Part shown: one piece after another, positions 4,947 through 25,668 of the stretch | Layout of the letters: every line of letters begins with the position of its first letter | Position numbering within the stretch: position 1 is the first letter of the stretch | Program-made: the position numbers and the translations under genes | The notes under the pieces: model-generated | What the model saw: the letters and a program-made list of their open reading frames with translations, nothing else | Databases searched by the model: none | Told to the model about the DNA's origin: nothing | NCBI GenBank assembly: GCA_009699505.1 | Contig: WLOB01000008.1 | Location: forward strand, 1-32,055 | Reading direction: 5' to 3' | DNA: 32,055 nucleotides | Origin: Actinomycetota bacterium | Lineage (GTDB): Bacteria; Actinomycetota; Thermoleophilia; Solirubrobacterales; Solirubrobacteraceae

Positions 4947-4975
4947 TTGACAGCGACTCCACGGCTGTCTAAATT
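4947..4975 (+). promoter_or_regulatory. Sigma70-like promoter for the acyl-CoA dehydrogenase operon, overlapped by a possible operator
   Basis: TTGACA (4947-4952), 17-bp spacer, TAAATT (4970-4975) in a local AT-rich patch. GACAGC-N9-GCTGTC inverted repeat (4949-4969) covers the -35 and spacer. Confidence 0.6.
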
Positions 4976-5052
4976 AATGATCATAGTTATCCCGTTCCAC
5001 GCCTGACGAACCGTCCCTCCGGTCCCGTCGCCTCTACCCCGGACACCCACGC

Positions 5053-6258
5053 ATGCTCTCCACCCCCAGGCAGCCCGGCCACCCCACGGGCACCGACGCC
5101 GAGGACACCGACGACCGCCGCGCGATCGTGCGGATGGCCGCCGAGTTCGCGGCGTCCGAGATCGCCCCGCAGGTCGCCGCGTACGATCGCGCGGAGCAGA
5201 TCCCGCGCGAGCTGCTCGACAAGATGGGCGCCCTCGGCTTCTTCGGCGGCGTCATCAGCGAGGAGGACGGCGGGCTCGGTCTGGACTACGTGACGTTCGC
5301 CGAGCTCATCGAGGAGGTCTCGAAGACCTGCCAGATCCTCGGCACGTTCGTGTCCATGCCCTCCGGCCTGGTCGGCGCGAGCATCGAGGCGTTCGGCACC
5401 GCGGAGCAGAAGGAGCGGTGGCTCAAGCCGCTGGCCCAGGGACGGATCTTCGGCGCCGCCGGCGTCACCGAGCCGGGCTCGGGCAGCGACGTCGCCGGCA
5501 TGACGACGACCTACCGCAAGGAGGGCGACGACTTCGTCATCAACGGCGCGAAGGCCTGGATCTCCAACCTCGACGTGGCGGAGTTCTTCGTCACCTTCGC
5601 CTCCCGCGACCGCTCGGCCCGCCACGGCGGCGTGACCGCCTTCATCATCCCGCGCGACACGCCCGGCCTGATCCTGTCGCCGTACAAGGACAAGCTCGGC
5701 TTCCGCCCGATCTGCACCGGCGACGTCGTCTTCGACGAGCTCCGCCTGCCGGCCGACGCGCTGCTCGGCGAGGAGGGCGGGGGCTTCAAGGTCGCGATGA
5801 CCGCCGTGGAGCGCGGTCGCCTCGGCGTCGCCGCCCGCGCGGTCGGCGTGACGCAGGCCTGCCTCGAGGACACCGTCGCCTACGCGAAGGAGCGCGCCGC
5901 CTTCGGCCGCCCGATCGCCGAGTTCCAGATCGTCCAGTCGAAGGTCACGGACATGGCGGTCGGCGCCACGACCTCGCGCCTGCTCGTCCGCGAGTGCGCC
6001 GAGGCGCTGCAGGAGGGCCGGCGCGCCCGTCAGCTCACGAGCATGGCGAAGATGTACGCGTCGGACGTGGCGCAGAAGAGCGCGACCGACGCGTTCCAGG
6101 TCTTCGGCGCCGCCGGCGTCTCGCCCGAGCACCGCGTCGGCCGGATGTACCGCGACGCGAAGGTCCTGCAGATCGTCGAGGGCAGCAACGACCTGCACCG
6201 GGCGCTGATCGGCGAGATCGAGCTCGGCCTCCGCGCCGACGGGGAGCGCCGGGCATGA
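5053..6258 (+). CDS. Acyl-CoA dehydrogenase
   Basis: AAGVTEPGSGSDVAGMTTTYRKEGDDFVINGAKAWISN, KERAAFGRPIAEFQIVQSKV, VEGSNDLHRALIG. Confidence 0.93.
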   Translation: MLSTPRQPGHPTGTDAEDTDDRRAIVRMAAEFAASEIAPQVAAYDRAEQIPRELLDKMGALGFFGGVISEEDGGLGLDYVTFAELIEEVSKTCQILGTFVSMPSGLVGASIEAFGTAEQKERWLKPLAQGRIFGAAGVTEPGSGSDVAGMTTTYRKEGDDFVINGAKAWISNLDVAEFFVTFASRDRSARHGGVTAFIIPRDTPGLILSPYKDKLGFRPICTGDVVFDELRLPADALLGEEGGGFKVAMTAVERGRLGVAARAVGVTQACLEDTVAYAKERAAFGRPIAEFQIVQSKVTDMAVGATTSRLLVRECAEALQEGRRARQLTSMAKMYASDVAQKSATDAFQVFGAAGVSPEHRVGRMYRDAKVLQIVEGSNDLHRALIGEIELGLRADGERRA

Positions 6259-8358: not shown

Positions 8359-8805
8359 ATGCGCACGAGCACGAGCACCACCGCGGCCGGCGCCGGGCCG
8401 GCCGGTGCCGCCGGGGGGACCGGCGGCCGGGCACGGCGGGCCCCCACCCGCGTCGTCGTCGACCGCCTCGAGGCGGTCCCGCCCGGCACGACCAGGATCG
8501 TCGAGGTCGGCGGCCGGTCGATCGGCGTCATCAACGACGGCGGGCGGCTGCACGCCCTGCGCAACGTGTGCCCGCACCACGGGGCGCCGCTGTGCGACGG
8601 CCGCGTCCAGGGGTTCATGCGGCCCTCCGCGCCGCACGTCTACGAGTACACGGGCGAGGACGCGGAGGACCGCGTGCTGCTCTGCCCGTGGCACGGCTAC
8701 AAGTTCCGGCTCTCGGACGGGCGGTCGCTCGCCGACCCGGAGACCTCGCGGGTGCGGACCTACCGCGTCGAGGTCGAGGACGGGGACGTCGTCCTCTACG
8801 TCTGA
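8359..8805 (+). CDS. Rieske [2Fe-2S] protein with a long spacer between ligand motifs
   Basis: NVCPHHGAPLC...LLCPWHGYKFRLSDGRSLADPETSRVRTYRVEVEDGDVVLYV; the two Rieske ligand pairs CxH and CxxH are present. Confidence 0.85.
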   Translation: MRTSTSTTAAGAGPAGAAGGTGGRARRAPTRVVVDRLEAVPPGTTRIVEVGGRSIGVINDGGRLHALRNVCPHHGAPLCDGRVQGFMRPSAPHVYEYTGEDAEDRVLLCPWHGYKFRLSDGRSLADPETSRVRTYRVEVEDGDVVLYV

Positions 8806-8814
8806 GGAACCCGG

Positions 8815-8832
8815 CGGGGCTCTGGGGCCCCG
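8815..8832. terminator. Weak hairpin between convergent genes
   Basis: CGGGGC-TCTGGG-GCCCCG, 10 nt after the Rieske stop; no T-tract. Confidence 0.25.
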
Positions 8833-8871
8833 TCCGACTGCGGCTCCGGGCGACGTCGCCGACCGGGGCCC

Positions 8872-9204
8872 TCAGCCCGAGCGGCCGTCGTCGCGGTCGC
8901 ACGCCGATTGCGTGTCGCCGGGCTCGCCGGTGCCGCCCACCGCGACGTGGGCGTCCCCGAGGGGCAGGCCGAGGGTCCCGGCGACGGACCGCACCGGCGC
9001 CAGCGCGTGCGTGCGCCGCCCCGCGGCGTCGTCGGCGGGGACGTCGACCCGGTAGACCGCCCGGCCGTCGCGCGGGGCGACCCGGACGGTCGAGACCGCC
9101 GGGTGCTCCAGCAGCGCGTCGGCCACGGCGCCCGCCGCGGCCGCGCCGGCAGGGCCGAGGTCGACGGCGACGGTGGCGACGACGATCCCCGTCCCGCCCG
9201 GCAC
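8872..9204 (-). CDS. Small hypothetical protein (about 110 aa)
   Basis: In-frame GTG 3 nt after the SDR stop; product VPGGTGIVVATVAVDLGPAGAAAAGAVADALLEHPAVSTVRVAPRDGRAVYRVDVPADD... looks more protein-like than neighbouring antisense frames. Weak RBS. Confidence 0.45.
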   Translation of the reverse strand: MPGGTGIVVATVAVDLGPAGAAAAGAVADALLEHPAVSTVRVAPRDGRAVYRVDVPADDAAGRRTHALAPVRSVAGTLGLPLGDAHVAVGGTGEPGDTQSACDRDDGRSG

Positions 9205-9206
9205 GC

Positions 9207-9959
9207 TCAGAGCTTCGACGACTCGCCGCCGTCGGCGACGAGCACCGAGCCGGTCACGAAGTCCGACGCGCCCGACGCGAGCAGGCAGACGAGCGGTCCG
9301 ATCTCGGCGGGGTCGCCCATGCGCCCGGCGGGGATCTTGCGCAGGCGGCGCGTCAGGATCTCGTCGGACTCCAGCACGGCGGACTGCGCGTCGGTCGCGT
9401 AGGCACCGGGGGCGATCGCGTTGACCTGGATCCCCTTGCCGGCCCACTCGCCGGCGAGCGCCTTCGTGAACTGCAGCACCGCGCCCTTCGACGACGAGTA
9501 CGCGACGAGCGTCGGCTTGCCGAGGATGCCCGACGTCGAGGCGATGTTGATGACCTTGCCCGAGCCCTGGGCGAGGAAGTGCCTCCCGGCGGCGCGGGCG
9601 AGCGTGACCGGGGCGAAGACGTTGACCTCGAAGACCTCCTGCCACACGTCGTCGTCCAGGTCGACGAAGCGCCCGGCCGGGGCGATGCCCGCGTTGTTGA
9701 CGACGACGTCCAGGCGGCCGAAGCGCTCCACGGCGAGGTCGGCCAGCGCAGCGACCTGCGCGCGGTCGCGCATGTCGCACGTCGCGGCCACCACGGCGCC
9801 GTCGGGCGCCTCGGCGGCGACCTCGTCGAGCGCGGCGGTCGTCCGCGCGACCGCCAGGACCTTGGCGCCCTCGGCCGCCAGGGCGAGCACCGCCGCCCGG
9901 CCGAGCCCGCGGCTGGCGCCGGTCACGATCGCGACGCGGCCCTCCAGGCCGAGGTTCAC
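9207..9959 (-). CDS. SDR family oxidoreductase (FabG-like)
   Basis: LEGRVAIVTGASRGLGRAAVLALAAEGAKVLAVART, VVNNAGIAPAG, YSSSKGAVLQFTKALAGEWAGKGIQVNAIAPG. GTG start overlaps the upstream gene stop (GTGA). Confidence 0.92.
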   Translation of the reverse strand: MNLGLEGRVAIVTGASRGLGRAAVLALAAEGAKVLAVARTTAALDEVAAEAPDGAVVAATCDMRDRAQVAALADLAVERFGRLDVVVNNAGIAPAGRFVDLDDDVWQEVFEVNVFAPVTLARAAGRHFLAQGSGKVINIASTSGILGKPTLVAYSSSKGAVLQFTKALAGEWAGKGIQVNAIAPGAYATDAQSAVLESDEILTRRLRKIPAGRMGDPAEIGPLVCLLASGASDFVTGSVLVADGGESSKL

Positions 9960-19390: not shown

Positions 19391-20215
19391 ATGCCCGCGT
19401 TCCTCACCCGCCCCCGCCGCCTCCTGCCCCGGGGCCTGCTCGACCTGCTCGTGCAGTTCGCGATCGTCTTCGTGATCTACGAGACGTACCGCCTGACCCG
19501 TGGCCTGATCGACGACCCGCTGTCGGCCCGCGTCGCGTTCCGCAACGCGGAGTGGATCATCGACGCGGAGCGCGCGCTGCGGATCGACGTCGAGGACGAG
19601 GTCCAGCGGTTCGCCGAGAGCGTCGGTGGCCTGTCGAGCGTGTCGTCGTTCCTCTACATCAACGTCCAGACCACGGTGACGTTCGCCGTCATGGCGTACA
19701 TCTACGTGCGCTTCACGTCGTCGTTCGGCTTCGTCCGCAACGCGTTCGTCGCGACCTGGGCGATCGCGCTCGTCGGCTTCGTGCTGCTGCCGACCGCGCC
19801 CCCGCGGCTGATCCCGGAGCTCGGCCTGCGCGACAGCGTCTCGATCTTCACGGGCGTGGACCCCAGCGACCGGCAGCTGCAGCGCTTCTACAACCCCTAC
19901 GCGGCGATGCCGTCGCTGCACTGCGGCATCGCGACGCTCGTCGGCGGGTCGCTGGCGCTGCTGTCGCGGACCCGCGCGGCCCGGATCGCGTGGTCGCTCT
20001 ACCCCGTCATGGTGATCTTCGTCGTGATGGCGACGGGCAACCACTACCTGCTCGACGCGGTCGCGGGCGTCCTCGTCGCCCTGGCGGGCGCCGGCGTCGC
20101 CTGGGGCTGCGGGCGTCTCCGTCCGGACGCGTGGGCGCTCCACCGCGGACCCGGTGCGACCGCGACCGCGACCGCGGGACCCGGTCCGGAGCGGCCCGCC
20201 GGACCGCCCGCGTAG
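19391..20215 (+). CDS. PAP2-type (inositolphosphotransferase/Aur1-like) membrane protein
   Basis: Multi-TM; YNPYAAMPSLHCGIATLVGGSLALL and GNHYLLDAVAGVLVAL match PAP2 motifs. Confidence 0.85.
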   Translation: MPAFLTRPRRLLPRGLLDLLVQFAIVFVIYETYRLTRGLIDDPLSARVAFRNAEWIIDAERALRIDVEDEVQRFAESVGGLSSVSSFLYINVQTTVTFAVMAYIYVRFTSSFGFVRNAFVATWAIALVGFVLLPTAPPRLIPELGLRDSVSIFTGVDPSDRQLQRFYNPYAAMPSLHCGIATLVGGSLALLSRTRAARIAWSLYPVMVIFVVMATGNHYLLDAVAGVLVALAGAGVAWGCGRLRPDAWALHRGPGATATATAGPGPERPAGPPA

Positions 20216-20331: not shown

Positions 20332-21603
20332 ATGCTGCGGGTGTGTCCAACCGGTGAACAAGGAACGGACGCCGCGAGCGGGTCCCGGGCGGTCGAGCCC
20401 CACGGGCCCTCCGGCGCCCCCGCCTCGACGGAGCTCCTGACGGGCAGGGCGGTGATCGCGGCCCCGCTGATCGGCGTCCTGACCCTGATCGCGGCCCTCC
20501 TCGCGACGAACCACGTCGGCGTCTCCTTCCGCGACACGAACCACGTCGCCGCGAAGTACGTCGTCCTCGTCGGCACCGCCCTGATCGTGCTCGTCGCCCT
20601 CGACGTCGCGATCCGCGCGGCCGCCGGCACCGGCAGCCGCCGGCCCACGCGCGAGGCGATGCGCGCCGTCCGCCGGGAGCGCTGGGGGCCGTTCCGGGGG
20701 CTCGCCGCCTTCGCGGGCCTCCTGGGCTTCTACCTCGCCTACCTGTCGTACGGGAACATCAAGAGCGTCGTGCCGCTCCTGCGGCCCGGGGTCAACTACG
20801 ACCGGGAGCTGCAGGACCTCGACGAGCTGCTCTTCTTCGGCGCGGACCCCACCGACCTGGCCCACAGCCTGCTCGGGGCCGGCTTCCAGACGCACGTGAT
20901 GTCGGTGTTCTACGTCGCGTTCATCGTCTTCCTGCCGCTCTCGCTGGCGCTGTCGCTCGTCTTCGCGAAGAACCTGCGGGGCGGGCTCTTCATCGCCACC
21001 GCGCTCTCGGCCAACTGGCTCATCGGCGCCGCGACCTACGTCGCCGTCCCGGCGCTCGGGCCGATCTACGCGTTCCCGGAGGTCTTCGCCCACCTGCCCG
21101 ACACCGCGGTGACGACGCTGCAGGGCGGGCTGCTCGACGACCGGGTGGCGTTCCTCGCGAACCCGAAGGACCCCGCGACGGGCCAGGCGATCGCAGCGTT
21201 CGTGTCCCTGCACACGTCGATGACCGTGACGGCGGCGCTGGCGGCCCACCTGCTCGGGCTGGGGCGCCGGCTCCGGATCGCCCTGTGGGTCGTCGTCGTC
21301 GTCACCCTGATCGACACGATCTACCTCGGCTGGCACTACGTCGTGGACGACATCGGCGGCATCGCGGTCGCCGTCTCGGCGCTCGTGGTCGCCCGGGTGC
21401 TGACGGGCATCGACCTGCGGGGCGCCCGCCGTGCCGCGGGCGAGGCCACCGCCCACCGGTCCGCGGTGGCGCCGGGCCCCTCCGAAGCACCGGACCGGAC
21501 GGAGGCGCCGGGCCCGCAGGACGCCGCGGAGGCGCCGGCGCACCCGGACCGCGCGGACGCCGAGCCGGTCGGCGTCGTCCCGCCGGGGCGCGGCTCGGGC
21601 TGA
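20332..21603 (+). CDS. PAP2 superfamily membrane protein with disordered C-terminal tail
   Basis: Multi-TM; FVSLHTSMTVTAALAAHLLGL and GWHYVVDDIGGIAVAV; GGAGGTGGCACCATG gives RBS plus start at 20332, so the tracked start at 19126 is rejected. Confidence 0.85.
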   Translation: MLRVCPTGEQGTDAASGSRAVEPHGPSGAPASTELLTGRAVIAAPLIGVLTLIAALLATNHVGVSFRDTNHVAAKYVVLVGTALIVLVALDVAIRAAAGTGSRRPTREAMRAVRRERWGPFRGLAAFAGLLGFYLAYLSYGNIKSVVPLLRPGVNYDRELQDLDELLFFGADPTDLAHSLLGAGFQTHVMSVFYVAFIVFLPLSLALSLVFAKNLRGGLFIATALSANWLIGAATYVAVPALGPIYAFPEVFAHLPDTAVTTLQGGLLDDRVAFLANPKDPATGQAIAAFVSLHTSMTVTAALAAHLLGLGRRLRIALWVVVVVTLIDTIYLGWHYVVDDIGGIAVAVSALVVARVLTGIDLRGARRAAGEATAHRSAVAPGPSEAPDRTEAPGPQDAAEAPAHPDRADAEPVGVVPPGRGSG

Positions 21604-21756: not shown

Positions 21757-23457
21757 TCAGGACGCGACGTCGGCCCGGCGGTCGCCCGCGGCGGACCGCG
21801 GCGCGACCGCTGGCGGCTCCCGGTCGGCGACCGGCGGGCGCTCGGCCACCGGGACGGCTGCGGGCAGGTCGCCCGCCCAGGGCAGTCGCAGGCTCGACGG
21901 CAGGACCGCCCCGCGGCCGAGGCGGCGCTCGACGGCGACGAGCACCGCGAAGGCCATGGGTCCGAGCTCGCGCAGGGACTGGTGGCGGTTCTGGCGGGAG
22001 CCGAGGTCGACCTCGGCCAGCGCGTCGAGGCCGACGAGCTCGAGGGCGTCGATCAGCGTGGCGATCTCGACGCCGTAGCCGACGGGGAACGGCAGGCGGA
22101 CCAGCAGGGAGCGCCGCGCGGCGAACTCGCCCGCGAGCGGCTGCCGGAAGCCCGCCAGCAGCGGGTGGTGGTGGTTCAGGAGCGGACGGGCGGTCAGCTC
22201 GGTGACGCGCCCGCCGTCGTGCGGCGAGAGCGTCCCGTCGTCCTCGCGGCGGTGCCGCGCGAAGCAGCCGCGGACCATCGCGACGGCGTCGTCCGTCAGG
22301 AGCGGGCCGAGGACCCCGGCGAGGTGCGCCGGTGTCGGGTCCTCCGTGTCGCCGTCGAGGAACGCGACGACGTCGCAGTCCGTGGCCTGCAGCGCCCGCC
22401 ACATCGCGTCGCCCTTGCCGCGGCACGGGCCCGCGCCCGGCACGAGGTCGTCCTGCTGCAGCACGCGGGCGCCGTGGGCCGCGGCGACGGCGGCCGTGCC
22501 GTCCGCCGAGGCGGCGTCCACCACGAGCACCTCGTCGACGACCCCGGCGTCCCGGAGCGGACCGACGGTCCGGGAGAGGACGCCGCCGATCGTGCCGGCG
22601 ACCTCCTTCGCGGGGACGACCACCGCGACGCGGAGGCCCCGGCGGGTCGCGGCCGCCGCCAGGCGCGGGACGTCGAACTCGTCGTGGACGTAGCGCCGCT
22701 CGGCCCGCCAGGACTCGAGGGCCAGGTCGACCGCCAGCCCGCGGGCCGCCCGGCCGGTCGTCCGGGGGCTCGTGTGCACGACGGCGGCGGCGGTGCGGTG
22801 GACGGCGAGCCCCGCGCCGCGGACGGCGTCGAGGAGCGCCTCGTCCTCGAGGGCCGGCGGCGTGGGCATGCCGCCGCACGCCTCGTAGGCGTCCGCCGTG
22901 ATCGCGAGGTTCGCGGCGGAGAAGTGGTGGTGCGGGGCGCCGGGGCCGTCGACGTCGCGGACCGCCGCGAGGCGCACGACGGCCGCGGAGGCGCGCCGGC
23001 GTGCCGCCTCCGGACCCAGGCCGCGGGCGGGGTCGATCCGCACGTCGCCCGCGACGACGTCGTGGCCGTCGTCCGCGGCCCGCAGCAGCGCGGCGAGCCA
23101 GCCCGGCGTCGGGCGCGTGTCGGCGTCCGTGCTGACCACGAGGCCGCCGCGCGCGGGCGGCAGCGCCGCGTCGCGTCGCAGCCAGGTGCAGGCGGCGTCC
23201 ATCCCGACCCGGCGCGCCCAGCCGACGCCCGAGCCGGGACCCGTCACGACGCGGACCGGGACGCCGCGCCGCGCCGCCCCGACGGCCCGGCCGCGGGCCA
23301 CGGCCGCCGTCCGGTCGGTCGAGCCGTCGTCGACGAGCAGGACGCCGAAGCAGCGGCCGACCTCGTCGACCTGGTCGACGAGCGCGTCCAGGGTCGGGCC
23401 GATCAGGGCCTCCTCGTCCCGGGCGGGGACGACGACGACGGCGCGCAGCCGGCTCAT
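21757..23457 (-). CDS. Fusion of an N-terminal GT2 glycosyltransferase and a C-terminal GpgS-like (glucosyl-3-phosphoglycerate synthase, GT81) domain
   Basis: N-domain: VVVPARDEEALIGPTLDALVDQ, LLVDDGSTDRTAA, VVSTDADTRPTPGWL, HHFSAANLAITADAYEACGGMP. C-domain: VAVVVPAKEVAGTIG, GKGDAMWRALQATDCDVVAFLDGD, GGRVTELTARPLLN, QPLAGEFAARRSLLVRLPFPVGYGVEIATLIDALELVGLDALAEVDLGSRQNRHQSLRELG. ATG 23457 overlaps the methyltransferase stop. Confidence 0.9.
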   Translation of the reverse strand: MSRLRAVVVVPARDEEALIGPTLDALVDQVDEVGRCFGVLLVDDGSTDRTAAVARGRAVGAARRGVPVRVVTGPGSGVGWARRVGMDAACTWLRRDAALPPARGGLVVSTDADTRPTPGWLAALLRAADDGHDVVAGDVRIDPARGLGPEAARRRASAAVVRLAAVRDVDGPGAPHHHFSAANLAITADAYEACGGMPTPPALEDEALLDAVRGAGLAVHRTAAAVVHTSPRTTGRAARGLAVDLALESWRAERRYVHDEFDVPRLAAAATRRGLRVAVVVPAKEVAGTIGGVLSRTVGPLRDAGVVDEVLVVDAASADGTAAVAAAHGARVLQQDDLVPGAGPCRGKGDAMWRALQATDCDVVAFLDGDTEDPTPAHLAGVLGPLLTDDAVAMVRGCFARHRREDDGTLSPHDGGRVTELTARPLLNHHHPLLAGFRQPLAGEFAARRSLLVRLPFPVGYGVEIATLIDALELVGLDALAEVDLGSRQNRHQSLRELGPMAFAVLVAVERRLGRGAVLPSSLRLPWAGDLPAAVPVAERPPVADREPPAVAPRSAAGDRRADVAS

Positions 23458-24047
23458 CGCTCGAAGGCGTCGAGCAGGTAGCCCCGCTCGTGGTCGGCGG
23501 CGGGCAGGGGGACGGCGCGCAGGCCCGTGGACCGCAGGGCGTCGTGGGTCGCGGCGGCGCTCCGGGCGAGGTCGTCGGCGCGCCCGGTCCAGTGGACGGC
23601 GACGAGGCGGCCGCCGTCCGTCAGGAGCTCCGGCAGGAGGCGCAGGGCGCGGTCGAAGGCCGCGTCGGGCAGGTAGTAGAGGATCTCCGACGCGACGACC
23701 ACGTCGTACCGGCCGTCCGCCGGGAGGTCGTCGGGCACGCTGCCCTCGAGGATCTTGACGTGCGCGCTGCCGGAGAGGCGCTCCCGGGCGATCGCCACGG
23801 CGGTGGGGGAGAAGTCGATCGTGGTCAGCCGGGCGCACCGGGGGGCGAGCTCGGCGGAGAGGACGCCGGTGGCCGCGCCGAGCTCGAGGACCGCGCCCAG
23901 CCCGTCCGGCCCGCAGGCCTCGACGGTGCGGGCCCGCTTCTCCTGCTCGTAGGCCGAGGAGCGGTAGTCCCACGGGTCGGCGTCCTCGCGGAACTTCGCG
24001 TCGAAGTGCCGGGCGTCCGCGGGCACCGGGCGGTCCGCGGCGCTCAC
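23454..24047 (-). CDS. NodS-like class I SAM-dependent methyltransferase
   Basis: HFDAKFREDADPWDYRSSAYEQEKRARTVEAC (N-terminal DPW...YE...K pattern of the NodS family), VLELGAATGVLSAELAPRCARLTTIDFSPTAVAIARERL, YDVVVASEILYYLP. 4-bp overlaps on both sides. Confidence 0.88.
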   Translation of the reverse strand: MSAADRPVPADARHFDAKFREDADPWDYRSSAYEQEKRARTVEACGPDGLGAVLELGAATGVLSAELAPRCARLTTIDFSPTAVAIARERLSGSAHVKILEGSVPDDLPADGRYDVVVASEILYYLPDAAFDRALRLLPELLTDGGRLVAVHWTGRADDLARSAAATHDALRSTGLRAVPLPAADHERGYLLDAFER

Positions 24048-25054
24048 CGGCCCTCCTCGCGGAGCGCGTGGCCGACCCGCACGGCGGCGGGCGTCAGCCG
24101 GTGCTGGAGGAGCAGCAGGTCGAGCTCGGCGCGCGCCCGGGCGACGTCATCGTCGACCGCCATCGGGTGCGAGCCCGTCAGCTCGGCGCACGCGCGCAGC
24201 GCCTCGCGGCAGCGCTCCGTGACCTCGAGCCGGGCCAGCAGGATCGTCCGCGGGGCGGACGCCGGGTCCTGCTCGAGCACGTGGACGGCGTGGTCGAGCC
24301 ACAGGTCGACGGACGCCCGGGCGGCGTGGGCGCGGGCCAGGAGCGCGGCCTCGGCGTCGGAGACCGGGCGGGCCCGGACGGCGGCCGTGGTGCCGTCGAC
24401 GACGTGGTCCAGCGCGCCCGCCCACGTGACGGCGGTGCGCAGCGCGTCGCCGCCGAACCACGGCTCGGTCAGGAGGGCGCTGCGGCCGTCGTCCGCCGAC
24501 CGGAGCGTCGCCAGCACGGGGGCGCGGTCCAGGCGGACGCGGTGGCTCGCGCTCGAGCGCAGCACGTCGCCGCGCCACCAGCCGCGGTCGACGACGGCGC
24601 GGTCGGGGTCGGCGACGTCGAGGAGGACGCAGACGGACTCCGCGGGCCGGTCCTCGCGGCGGACGAGGACGAGCGCGCGCCGCACGAGCCCGGCGCCCGA
24701 GCAGAAGACCTTCGTGCCCGACACGGTGGCCCCGCCGGCGTCGATCGACGCCGGCTCGCCCTCGTCACCGCGCGGGTCGGCGCCCCACACGCCGTGCGGG
24801 ACGGTCCCCGAGGCGGCGGCGGCCCGGTCCTCCCCGGCGACGTCCTCGGGCCGGTGGCGCAGCAGGCGCTCCAGGGCGTTGCGGTGCCCGTCGAGGACCC
24901 GTCCCAGGCCGAGGTCGCCGGCGGCGACGGCGCGCAGCGCACGGTGCTCGGCCGCGCGGGTGGCGAAGGCGTCGCCCGCCGCGAGGCCGGCGAGGACGAC
25001 CGCGTCCCAGCCCGGGACGACGGCGGCACCGGGGGCGTCGTGGAGCGTGCTCAT
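24044..25054 (-). CDS. Divergent acyl-CoA dehydrogenase-like protein
   Basis: GVWGADPRGDEGEPASIDAGGATVSGTKVFCSGAGLVRRALVLVRR resembles the ACAD middle domain; helical C-terminus; no recognisable YEG(T/G)xQ-like terminal motif. Overlaps the deacetylase stop by 4 bp. Confidence 0.7.
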   Translation of the reverse strand: MSTLHDAPGAAVVPGWDAVVLAGLAAGDAFATRAAEHRALRAVAAGDLGLGRVLDGHRNALERLLRHRPEDVAGEDRAAAASGTVPHGVWGADPRGDEGEPASIDAGGATVSGTKVFCSGAGLVRRALVLVRREDRPAESVCVLLDVADPDRAVVDRGWWRGDVLRSSASHRVRLDRAPVLATLRSADDGRSALLTEPWFGGDALRTAVTWAGALDHVVDGTTAAVRARPVSDAEAALLARAHAARASVDLWLDHAVHVLEQDPASAPRTILLARLEVTERCREALRACAELTGSHPMAVDDDVARARAELDLLLLQHRLTPAAVRVGHALREEGR

Positions 25055-25668
25055 CGGGCGGCCACCACCGGGGCGGTCGGGTGGTGCGCGCCGGCCGGGT
25101 CCGGCAGGGCGGTCAGGGCGAGGTCGCGCCGCGCCGCCCACGCCGCGGCGAGGGGGACGAGCGCGACGGTCCCGGCGCAGTCCGCGCGGGTGGCCCCGGG
25201 TCCCAGGCCGTCGTGGGCGAGCACGATGCCGCCGTCCGGGGCGTCCCGCGCGATCCGGTCGAGCCCGTCGGCGGGCGGGTCGCCGCGCCAGTCGTGCGTG
25301 TCGGCGTCCCAGCCGACGAGGGAGAGGCCGAGCTCGTCGGCCACGGTCCACGTCGCCTCCGTGGTCCGTCCCCACGGCGTCCGCCACCAGGACGGGGAGG
25401 CGCCCGCGCCGGCCAGCGCGTCCAGCGCCCGTGTGCAGTCGTCTCGGAGCTCGGCGAGGGTCAGGCGGTCGTGGCGGACGTGCCGGTGCGCGTGCAGCTC
25501 GACGCGGTGGCCGGCGGCCAGGGCGTCCCGGACGATGCCGGGGTGCCGCGCCACCGACGGCCCGAGGACGAAGAACGTGGCGGTCGCGCCGGCCGCGGCC
25601 AGGGCGTCGAGGACGGCGGGCGTCGACCCGGGGGAGGGCCCGTCGTCGAAGGTCAGGTGCAGAGCCAT
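25051..25668 (-). CDS. Cytoplasmic polysaccharide deacetylase (CE4, NodB homology domain)
   Basis: HLTFDDGPSPGSTPAVLDAL, ATFFVLG, VELHAHRHVRHDRLT, WWRTPWGRTT, GWDADTHDW, IVLAHDG; no signal peptide ahead of the catalytic motif. Confidence 0.88.
   Translation of the reverse strand: MALHLTFDDGPSPGSTPAVLDALAAAGATATFFVLGPSVARHPGIVRDALAAGHRVELHAHRHVRHDRLTLAELRDDCTRALDALAGAGASPSWWRTPWGRTTEATWTVADELGLSLVGWDADTHDWRGDPPADGLDRIARDAPDGGIVLAHDGLGPGATRADCAGTVALVPLAAAWAARRDLALTALPDPAGAHHPTAPVVAAR

What the first reader, a model, noticed from the sequence alone, without database searches (positions are those of the whole stretch)
21757..25668. Four-gene overlapping operon with Nod-factor-like chemistry: CE4/NodB-like deacetylase, ACAD-like, NodS-like methyltransferase, GT2-GpgS fusion
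Seen: four minus-strand ORFs (25668-25051, 25054-24044, 24047-23454, 23457-21757), every junction a 4-bp ATGA overlap, implying coupled translation. Established: in rhizobia NodC (GT2) makes chitooligosaccharide, NodB (CE4) deacetylates its non-reducing end and NodS N-methylates the freed amine. From memory, related clusters elsewhere combine GT2, a NodS-like methyltransferase, an ACAD-like protein and a PIG-L deacetylase. Inference: this version uses a CE4 deacetylase and adds a GpgS-like domain, suggesting an intracellular deacetylated, methylated and oxidised glycan or glycosyl-glycerate. The product is unknown.
Basis: partly seen in the sequence, partly recalled or inferred. Interest (0 to 1): 0.85.

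Follow-up and report, generated by a model that had tools for sequence, protein, structure and literature searches.

The report
Uncharacterised amino-sugar glycoside operon in Patulibacter
Four tightly coupled genes, conserved across soil actinobacteria, look like an intracellular assembly line that attaches an amino sugar, strips its acetyl group, methylates and oxidises it, and ties this to glucosylglycerate synthesis; the product is unknown and is probably a stress-protective small molecule.

Summary
The operon is real. Four minus-strand genes (CE4, ACAD-like, NodS-like, GT2-GpgS) overlap by 4 bp at each junction; one junction is GTGA, not ATGA. The genome is a 75%-complete MAG of the genus of Patulibacter minatonensis. 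The same order recurs in about 41 loci of Thermoleophilia and Rubrobacteraceae, usually (28 of 41) with a fifth gene, a pyridine-nucleotide FAD oxidoreductase. PIG-L and CE4 were never found together, so one deacetylase replaced the other. The GpgS domain passes the curated GpgS cutoff, and GpgS joined the cluster at least twice (GT2 fusion; separate upstream gene). The ACAD-like protein has lost the dehydrogenase glutamate (an invariant Gln stands there) and is nearest to flavin monooxygenases and amino-sugar nitrososynthases. Best reading: a cytoplasmic pathway to a small N-methylated, probably N-oxidised amino-sugar glycoside connected to glucosylglycerate, likely a stress solute. Nod-factor membership fails; only the logic is shared. 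Product and substrates are untested. No paper on its function was found; in A. baumannii the PIG-L version falls together with trehalose genes.

The parts
25051..25668 (-). CE4 (NodB-like) polysaccharide deacetylase, 205 aa, no signal peptide; motifs TFDDG (6-10), H59xxxH63, RTPWG (96-100), DADTHDW (121-127), LAHDG (150-154)
   Evidence: motifs conserved in 18 orthologues and located
24044..25054 (-). ACAD-fold flavoprotein, 336 aa, resembling group D flavin monooxygenases / nitrososynthases; the catalytic Glu of acyl-CoA dehydrogenases is Gln317
23454..24047 (-). NodS-like SAM-dependent methyltransferase, 197 aa, GTG start
21757..23457 (-). fused glycosyltransferase, 566 aa: GT2 domain (about residues 1-240) plus GpgS/GT81 domain (about 245-545)
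22734..23457 (-). GT2 domain; DxD motif TDADT (residues 110-114) and ALEDE motif (202-206)
21820..22725 (-). GpgS domain; GKGDAMW (347-353), LDGDTED (367-373), GRVTEL (416-421), GYGVEI (460-465), RQNRHQ (488-493), matching the donor/acceptor/metal residues of M. tuberculosis GpgS
   Evidence: residue roles from PMC2581804
25051..25054 (-). 4-bp stop/start overlap CE4/ACAD (ATGA)
24044..24047 (-). 4-bp stop/start overlap ACAD/NodS-like (GTGA)
23454..23457 (-). 4-bp stop/start overlap NodS-like/GT2-GpgS (ATGA)

Best explanation
A cytoplasmic biosynthetic operon for a small amino-sugar glycoside. Proposed route: the GT2 domain attaches an N-acetylhexosamine to an acceptor; the CE4 enzyme (PIG-L in sister clusters) removes the acetyl group; the NodS-like enzyme N-methylates the freed amine; the ACAD-fold flavoprotein oxidises it (most likely N-oxygenation), with reduced flavin supplied in most relatives by the FAD oxidoreductase encoded beside it and in Patulibacter by another reductase. 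The GpgS domain makes glucosyl-3-phosphoglycerate, which a HAD phosphatase turns into glucosylglycerate, the likely acceptor or co-product. The product probably accumulates as a stress (desiccation, osmotic, oxidative) protectant. Shown: gene anatomy, conservation, intact CE4/GT2/GpgS motifs, deacetylase replacement, double recruitment of GpgS, linkage to a HAD phosphatase, loss of the dehydrogenase base. Inferred: substrates, order of steps, N- rather than O-methylation, N-oxygenation, physiological role.
For: Conserved coupled operon in about 41 loci. Non-homologous deacetylases with the same chemistry (CE4 or PIG-L) alternate next to homologous GT2, ACAD and NodS proteins: no PIG-L in 44 CE4 loci, no CE4 in six PIG-L loci, and a PIG-L version in the same class, L106; CE4-type ACADs form one clade of 46, support 99. 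GpgS passes its equivalog cutoff, is fused to GT2 in about 20 loci, and in four loci (three genomes) is a separate gene directly upstream of CE4, from a different GpgS clade (support 98). In P. minatonensis a HAD-IIB phosphatase overlaps the GT2-GpgS gene by 4 bp; in G002 it overlaps the unfused gpgS by 4 bp; in the window's own genome it stands beside a second NodS-like gene. Within the genus, cluster and GpgS occur together (3 genomes) or are both absent (5). ACAD-like: profile matches in the PDB are headed by MsuC, DszC, KijD3 and ORF36, above true ACADs; model pLDDT 89.5 with top Foldseek hits KijD3 and DnmZ; catalytic Glu is Gln in all aligned members. Stress context of the PIG-L version: next to otsAB and catalase in Acinetobacter, Mn-catalase and a universal stress protein in Roseivivax, catalase in Sphingobium; ACICU_02432-02435 is listed as one operon falling 31- to 62-fold together with otsAB (PMC5660220).
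Against: No substrate, product or phenotype is known. Some Rubrobacteraceae carry the cluster with GT2 alone or with a fused GpgS domain whose DxD motif is lost, so GpgS activity is not needed everywhere. Most of the order's GpgS genes occur without the cluster. The N-oxygenase reading rests on weak similarity (E about 1e-11, 13-21% identity, TM 0.6-0.75), and true ACADs reach similar TM-scores. The histidine active-site residue of DszC is Arg here. The companion reductase is of the ferredoxin-reductase type, not the usual HpaC type.
Confidence: 0.45

Rival explanations
1. A glucosylglycerate-primed methylated oligosaccharide or lipopolysaccharide, like mycobacterial MGLP, in which GpgS makes the primer and the other enzymes decorate an intracellular glycan.
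For: GpgS starts MGLP synthesis and MGLP is an intracellular methylated glycan (PMC2581804); GpgS is joined to the cluster twice.
Against: No chain-extending alpha-glucosyltransferase, branching enzyme or acyltransferase lies in the operon or recurs beside it; MGLP needs O-methylation, and neither a deacetylase nor an ACAD-like flavoprotein; PIG-L versions of the cluster lack GpgS.
Confidence: 0.15
2. A glycolipid or modified lipid head group: the GT2 acts on a lipid acceptor and the ACAD-like protein acts on its acyl chain.
For: The ACAD fold usually handles acyl-CoA; two PAP2 genes lie just downstream on the other strand; glucosylglycerate can be a lipid head group (stated for Nocardia in PMC2581804).
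Against: No membrane segments in the four proteins, no acyltransferase in the operon, the dehydrogenase base is lost, and the PAP2 genes do not recur beside the cluster in relatives.
Confidence: 0.15
3. A low-molecular-weight redox cofactor akin to mycothiol or bacillithiol, where a GT and a deacetylase make a glucosaminide to which further groups are added.
For: A GT paired with PIG-L is the logic of MshA/MshB and BshA/BshB (established knowledge); stress-gene surroundings in PIG-L clusters.
Against: No cysteine ligase or acetyltransferase in the cluster; N-methylation would block the amine on which a thiol group is built.
Confidence: 0.1
4. A true Nod-factor-type lipochitooligosaccharide pathway.
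For: NodB-like and NodS-like proteins beside a GT2.
Against: Scores far below the NodB and NodS equivalog cutoffs, no NodC match, no NodA acyltransferase in the neighbourhood, extra flavoenzyme and GpgS, and hosts are free-living soil actinobacteria.
Confidence: 0.02

Closest known systems
GT2 / ACAD-related / PIG-L (LmbE) / NodS-like methyltransferase cluster (e.g. ACICU_02432-02435 in Acinetobacter baumannii; Roseivivax, Sphingobium, Bradyrhizobium, Kitasatospora, Deinococcus loci)
   Same: Homologous GT2, ACAD-like and NodS-like proteins in one cluster with a GlcNAc-type de-N-acetylase; no function found in the papers searched
   Different: Here the deacetylase is CE4 instead of PIG-L, gene order is CE4-ACAD-NodS-GT2, GpgS is added, and relatives add a FAD oxidoreductase
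Nod-factor core enzymes NodC-NodB-NodS
   Same: Order of chemistry: GT2, CE4 de-N-acetylation, N-methylation; NodS is the top Pfam family of the methyltransferase, NodB the top NCBIfam model of the deacetylase
   Different: Below the curated NodB and NodS cutoffs, no NodC or NodA, plus a flavoprotein and GpgS
Glucosyl-3-phosphoglycerate synthase (GpgS, GT81) with its phosphatase; mannosyl-3-phosphoglycerate synthase of Rubrobacter (PDB 3f1y)
   Same: C-terminal domain passes the GpgS equivalog, keeps metal, donor and acceptor motifs, and is coupled to a HAD-IIB phosphatase in relatives
   Different: Fused to a GT2 domain inside an amino-sugar operon
Flavin-dependent amino-sugar N-oxygenases (nitrososynthases KijD3, ORF36, DnmZ) and group D monooxygenases DszC/MsuC
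   Same: Same fold; nearest solved relatives by profile and by structure
   Different: Only 13-21% identity; no dTDP-sugar pathway nearby; DszC active-site His92 is Arg52 here
Mycobacterial methylglucose lipopolysaccharide (MGLP) initiation
   Same: GpgS primes an intracellular methylated glycan (PMC2581804)
   Different: No elongation or O-methylation genes here; deacetylase and flavoprotein are foreign to MGLP

Membership tests
CE4 polysaccharide deacetylase (PF01522) | Pfam score above gathering cutoff | tested here: met
   91.2 bits against 23.1
CE4 polysaccharide deacetylase (PF01522) | five catalytic motifs: TFDDG, HxxxH, RxPxG, DxxDW, LxH | tested here: met
   all present and conserved in orthologues
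NodB | NCBIfam TIGR04243 equivalog cutoff | tested here: not met
   106.6 bits against 240
NodS | NCBIfam NF041650 equivalog cutoff | tested here: not met
   72.3 bits against 300
NodS domain family (PF05401) | Pfam score above gathering cutoff | tested here: met
   71 bits against 24
Nod-factor pathway | NodC chitin-oligosaccharide synthase and NodA acyltransferase | tested here: not met
   no NodC model among matches of the GT2 domain; no other gene in the operon, and no conserved acyltransferase beside relatives
GpgS (glucosyl-3-phosphoglycerate synthase) | NCBIfam NF010496 equivalog cutoff | tested here: met
   342 bits against 262; only such gene in the held part of the genome
GpgS (glucosyl-3-phosphoglycerate synthase) | metal, donor and acceptor motifs (DxD, GKG Lys, RVT, Glu of YGxE, RxxxH loop) | tested here: met
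   against residue roles in PMC2581804
GpgS (glucosyl-3-phosphoglycerate synthase) | uses NDP-glucose and 3-phosphoglycerate | not testable with these tools
   needs an enzyme assay; the best PDB match is a mannosyl-3-phosphoglycerate synthase
Acyl-CoA dehydrogenase | Pfam N, M and C domains above cutoff | tested here: not met
   only the middle domain, 18.4 bits against 33.3; true ACADs of the same window score 68-156 bits
Acyl-CoA dehydrogenase | catalytic Glu in the (V/Y)EG motif | tested here: not met
   Gln317, invariant in 36 orthologues and Gln also in PIG-L-type relatives
Group D flavin monooxygenase / nitrososynthase | closest solved relatives by profile and by fold | tested here: inconclusive
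   top matches MsuC, DszC, KijD3, ORF36 and KijD3, DnmZ, but remote and with the DszC His92 position changed
GT2/ACAD/NodS/PIG-L cluster | homologous GT2, ACAD and NodS proteins encoded together | tested here: met
   profiles of the window families find all three in Roseivivax, Sphingobium, Bradyrhizobium, Kitasatospora and Nostoc loci and L106
GT2/ACAD/NodS/PIG-L cluster | PIG-L deacetylase | tested here: not met
   no PIG-L in 44 CE4 loci; replaced by CE4

The most novel reading that the evidence does not exclude
A new class of natural product: a glucosylglycerate-linked, N-methylated and N-oxygenated (hydroxylamine, nitrone or nitroso) glucosaminide made as a general stress solute or antioxidant, with a widespread sister pathway in Acinetobacter, Deinococcus and alphaproteobacteria, and with a dedicated amino-sugar N-oxygenase outside antibiotic biosynthesis.
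Probability: 0.2. Interest if true: 0.85.

Novelty: new variant of a known kind. Interest (0 to 1): 0.62.

Why it matters
The same core cluster (GT2, ACAD-like, NodS-like, GlcNAc-type deacetylase) lies in stress-gene neighbourhoods of very different bacteria, yet no function was found for it in the papers searched. The actinobacterial version gives two independent clues to the chemistry that the common version does not: replacement of PIG-L by CE4 fixes the role of that gene as amino-sugar de-N-acetylation, and double recruitment of GpgS points to glucosylglycerate as acceptor or partner. That turns an anonymous cluster into a directly testable pathway, with a cultured host (Patulibacter minatonensis) and a tractable laboratory host for the sister form (Deinococcus radiodurans).

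Tried and rejected
Chance or misannotated ORFs: rejected by codon scores, domains and conservation. Nod-factor pathway proper: rejected by equivalog cutoffs. Ordinary acyl-CoA dehydrogenase: rejected by loss of the catalytic Glu and weak Pfam scores. ACAD query alone by phmmer against the PDB: no match at E below 1; a profile was needed. tblastn of the fused protein and of the ACAD in plasmids: few matches; the methyltransferase query opened the PIG-L clusters. The aspartyl-tRNA synthetase-like gene upstream of the operon in many Rubrobacteraceae (cluster c6) was considered as a pathway member and dropped: it is housekeeping synteny of one family (reading from the sequence). Literature: ten searches found no paper on the function of the cluster; one lists the A. 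baumannii operon in an expression table (PMC5660220).
Full report
WHAT IS THERE. Four minus-strand ORFs lie at 25668-25051 (205 aa), 25054-24044 (336 aa), 24047-23454 (197 aa) and 23457-21757 (566 aa). Each junction is a 4-bp overlap: ATGA, GTGA, ATGA; the methyltransferase starts at GTG, a small correction to the finding. All four are coding by codon usage. None has an evident signal peptide or membrane segment. The window is contig 512 of a 4.37-Mb assembly, 75% complete.

DOMAINS. CE4: PF01522 91 bits, five catalytic motifs intact and conserved. Methyltransferase: NodS PF05401 71 bits; the best PDB match is 4isc, then NodS itself. Last gene: N-terminal GT2 with TDADT and ALEDE motifs, C-terminal GpgS at 342 bits over a curated cutoff of 262, PDB best match 3f1y, a mannosyl-3-phosphoglycerate synthase of the GpgS type. 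The residues that bind metal, donor and acceptor in M. tuberculosis GpgS (PMC2581804) have counterparts (GKG, LDGDTED, GRVTEL, GYGVEI, RQNRHQ). The second ORF shows only a sub-threshold ACAD middle domain.

CONSERVATION. A scan of named genomes with the ACAD profile returned 38 loci, all in Thermoleophilia-type groups (Patulibacter, Conexibacter, Paraconexibacter, Solirubrobacter, unnamed MAGs) and Rubrobacteraceae. With loci of unnamed relatives, 41 were mapped: CE4 lies directly upstream of ACAD in 40, NodS downstream in nearly all where the contig reaches, then in 28 an FAD/NAD oxidoreductase (Pyr_redox_2, ferredoxin-reductase type), then GT2. Many junctions are 4-bp overlaps. Patulibacter lacks the oxidoreductase in the operon. 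The distribution is patchy: 14 of 249 genomes of the class, 10 of 107 genera; in the genus, three genomes have the cluster and five do not. A Rubrobacter indicoceani plasmid carries it too, which suggests mobility.

THE DEACETYLASE HAS BEEN SWAPPED. Annotated loci in Roseivivax, Sphingobium, Bradyrhizobium, Kitasatospora, Deinococcus radiodurans and Acinetobacter johnsonii contain an acyl-CoA dehydrogenase family protein, a PIG-L deacetylase and a methyltransferase, mostly with a GT2. Profiles of the window families recognise their ACAD, methyltransferase and, where present, GT2 proteins at E below 1e-30 (Acinetobacter not included there). No PIG-L occurs in 44 CE4 loci, and no CE4 in the six PIG-L loci tested. 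One genome of the window's own class (L106) has the PIG-L form. CE4-type ACADs form one clade, 46 of 46, SH-aLRT 99 (some PIG-L rows are long branches). Two unrelated enzymes that both remove acetyl groups from GlcNAc-type sugars (established for CE4 and PIG-L) therefore fill the same slot. This is the strongest evidence on chemistry: the pathway contains an N-acetylated amino sugar that is deacetylated. Methylation of the freed amine then follows by analogy with NodS and is an inference.

GpgS WAS RECRUITED TWICE. In about 20 loci GpgS is the C-terminal domain of the GT2 protein. In L055, L056, L060 and L068 it is a separate gene overlapping or abutting the start of CE4. The tree puts the separate genes in a different, well-supported GpgS clade (98) from the fused ones. 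In G002, of the same genus, GT2 is unfused and gpgS lies elsewhere, followed with a 4-bp overlap by a HAD-IIB phosphatase; in P. minatonensis the same phosphatase overlaps the fused gene by 4 bp; in the window's genome it stands on contig 503 beside a second NodS-like gene (150 bits to the window's) and close to a sigma-70-family sigma factor. So the step from glucosyl-3-phosphoglycerate to glucosylglycerate is tied to the pathway. Against a universal need: several Rubrobacteraceae have GT2 alone, and in L066, L074, L075 and L090 the fused GpgS domain has lost its DxD and other motifs.

THE ACAD-LIKE PROTEIN. A 36-member profile finds MsuC, DszC/TdsC, KijD3, ORF36 nitrososynthase and DnmZ in the PDB before ordinary acyl-CoA dehydrogenases (E about 1e-11 to 5e-7 against 2.5e-6). 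The AlphaFold model (pLDDT 89.5) is headed by KijD3, DnmZ, ColB1 and ORF36 in Foldseek, but true ACADs reach similar TM-scores. Aligned with two genuine ACADs of the same window, the catalytic Glu of the (V/Y)EG motif is Gln317, invariant in the family and in the PIG-L-type relatives. Dehydrogenation of an acyl-CoA is therefore unlikely. Group D monooxygenases have this fold and include N-hydroxylating enzymes that take reduced flavin from a reductase often encoded beside them (PMC6165268); the neighbouring FAD oxidoreductase of most relatives could play that part, though it is not of the usual reductase type. Amino-sugar N-oxygenation is the most likely chemistry, at moderate confidence.

ROLE. 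The PIG-L form sits beside trehalose synthesis genes and catalase in Acinetobacter, Mn-catalase and a universal stress protein in Roseivivax, catalase in Sphingobium, and Ku/LigD in Bradyrhizobium. In A. baumannii the operon ACICU_02432-02435 (glycosyltransferase, methyltransferase, LmbE, ACAD-related) falls 31- to 62-fold together with otsAB in colistin-dependent mutants (PMC5660220). Glucosylglycerate itself is a known stress solute (PMC2581804). A stress-protective soluble glycoside is the best reading. This is inference from context, not a phenotype.

VERDICT. It is not a Nod-factor system. It is a new variant, with a swapped deacetylase and a recruited GpgS, of a widespread cluster for which no function was found.

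Noticed in passing
L103 (own genome, contig 503) 5774-7172: A second NodS-like methyltransferase, directly before the HAD-IIB phosphatase that in P. minatonensis is coupled to GT2-GpgS; a sigma-70-family sigma factor gene lies close by.
   Followed up: partly
L066, L074, L075, L090: GT2-GpgS fusions in Rubrobacteraceae-type loci whose GpgS domain has lost the DxD and other catalytic motifs (pseudo-enzyme domain).
   Followed up: partly
L055 8948-10312 and L060 2834-4171: NodS-like methyltransferase and GT2 called as one fused gene; both loci belong to one Patulibacter MAG, which thus holds two copies of the cluster.
   Followed up: no
L048 7695-9209, L078, L084: In Solirubrobacter loci a reversed gene (an M28-family peptidase in L048) is inserted between ACAD and NodS-like genes.
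   Followed up: no
window 19391-20215 and 20452-21603: Two PAP2_3-family genes on the plus strand converge on the operon; not conserved beside it in relatives.
   Followed up: partly
L092 1175-3514 (Deinococcus radiodurans): The ACAD-like protein carries an N-terminal extension of about 425 residues without any Pfam match.
   Followed up: no
L093 (Rubrobacter indicoceani plasmid, CE4 at 4948-5820 to GT2 at 8763-9599): The five-gene CE4 version lies on a 170-kb plasmid, followed by a 546-aa protein without Pfam match.
   Followed up: no
L057: The only mapped locus without CE4 before ACAD; two paralogous genes of about 585 aa stand there instead.
   Followed up: no
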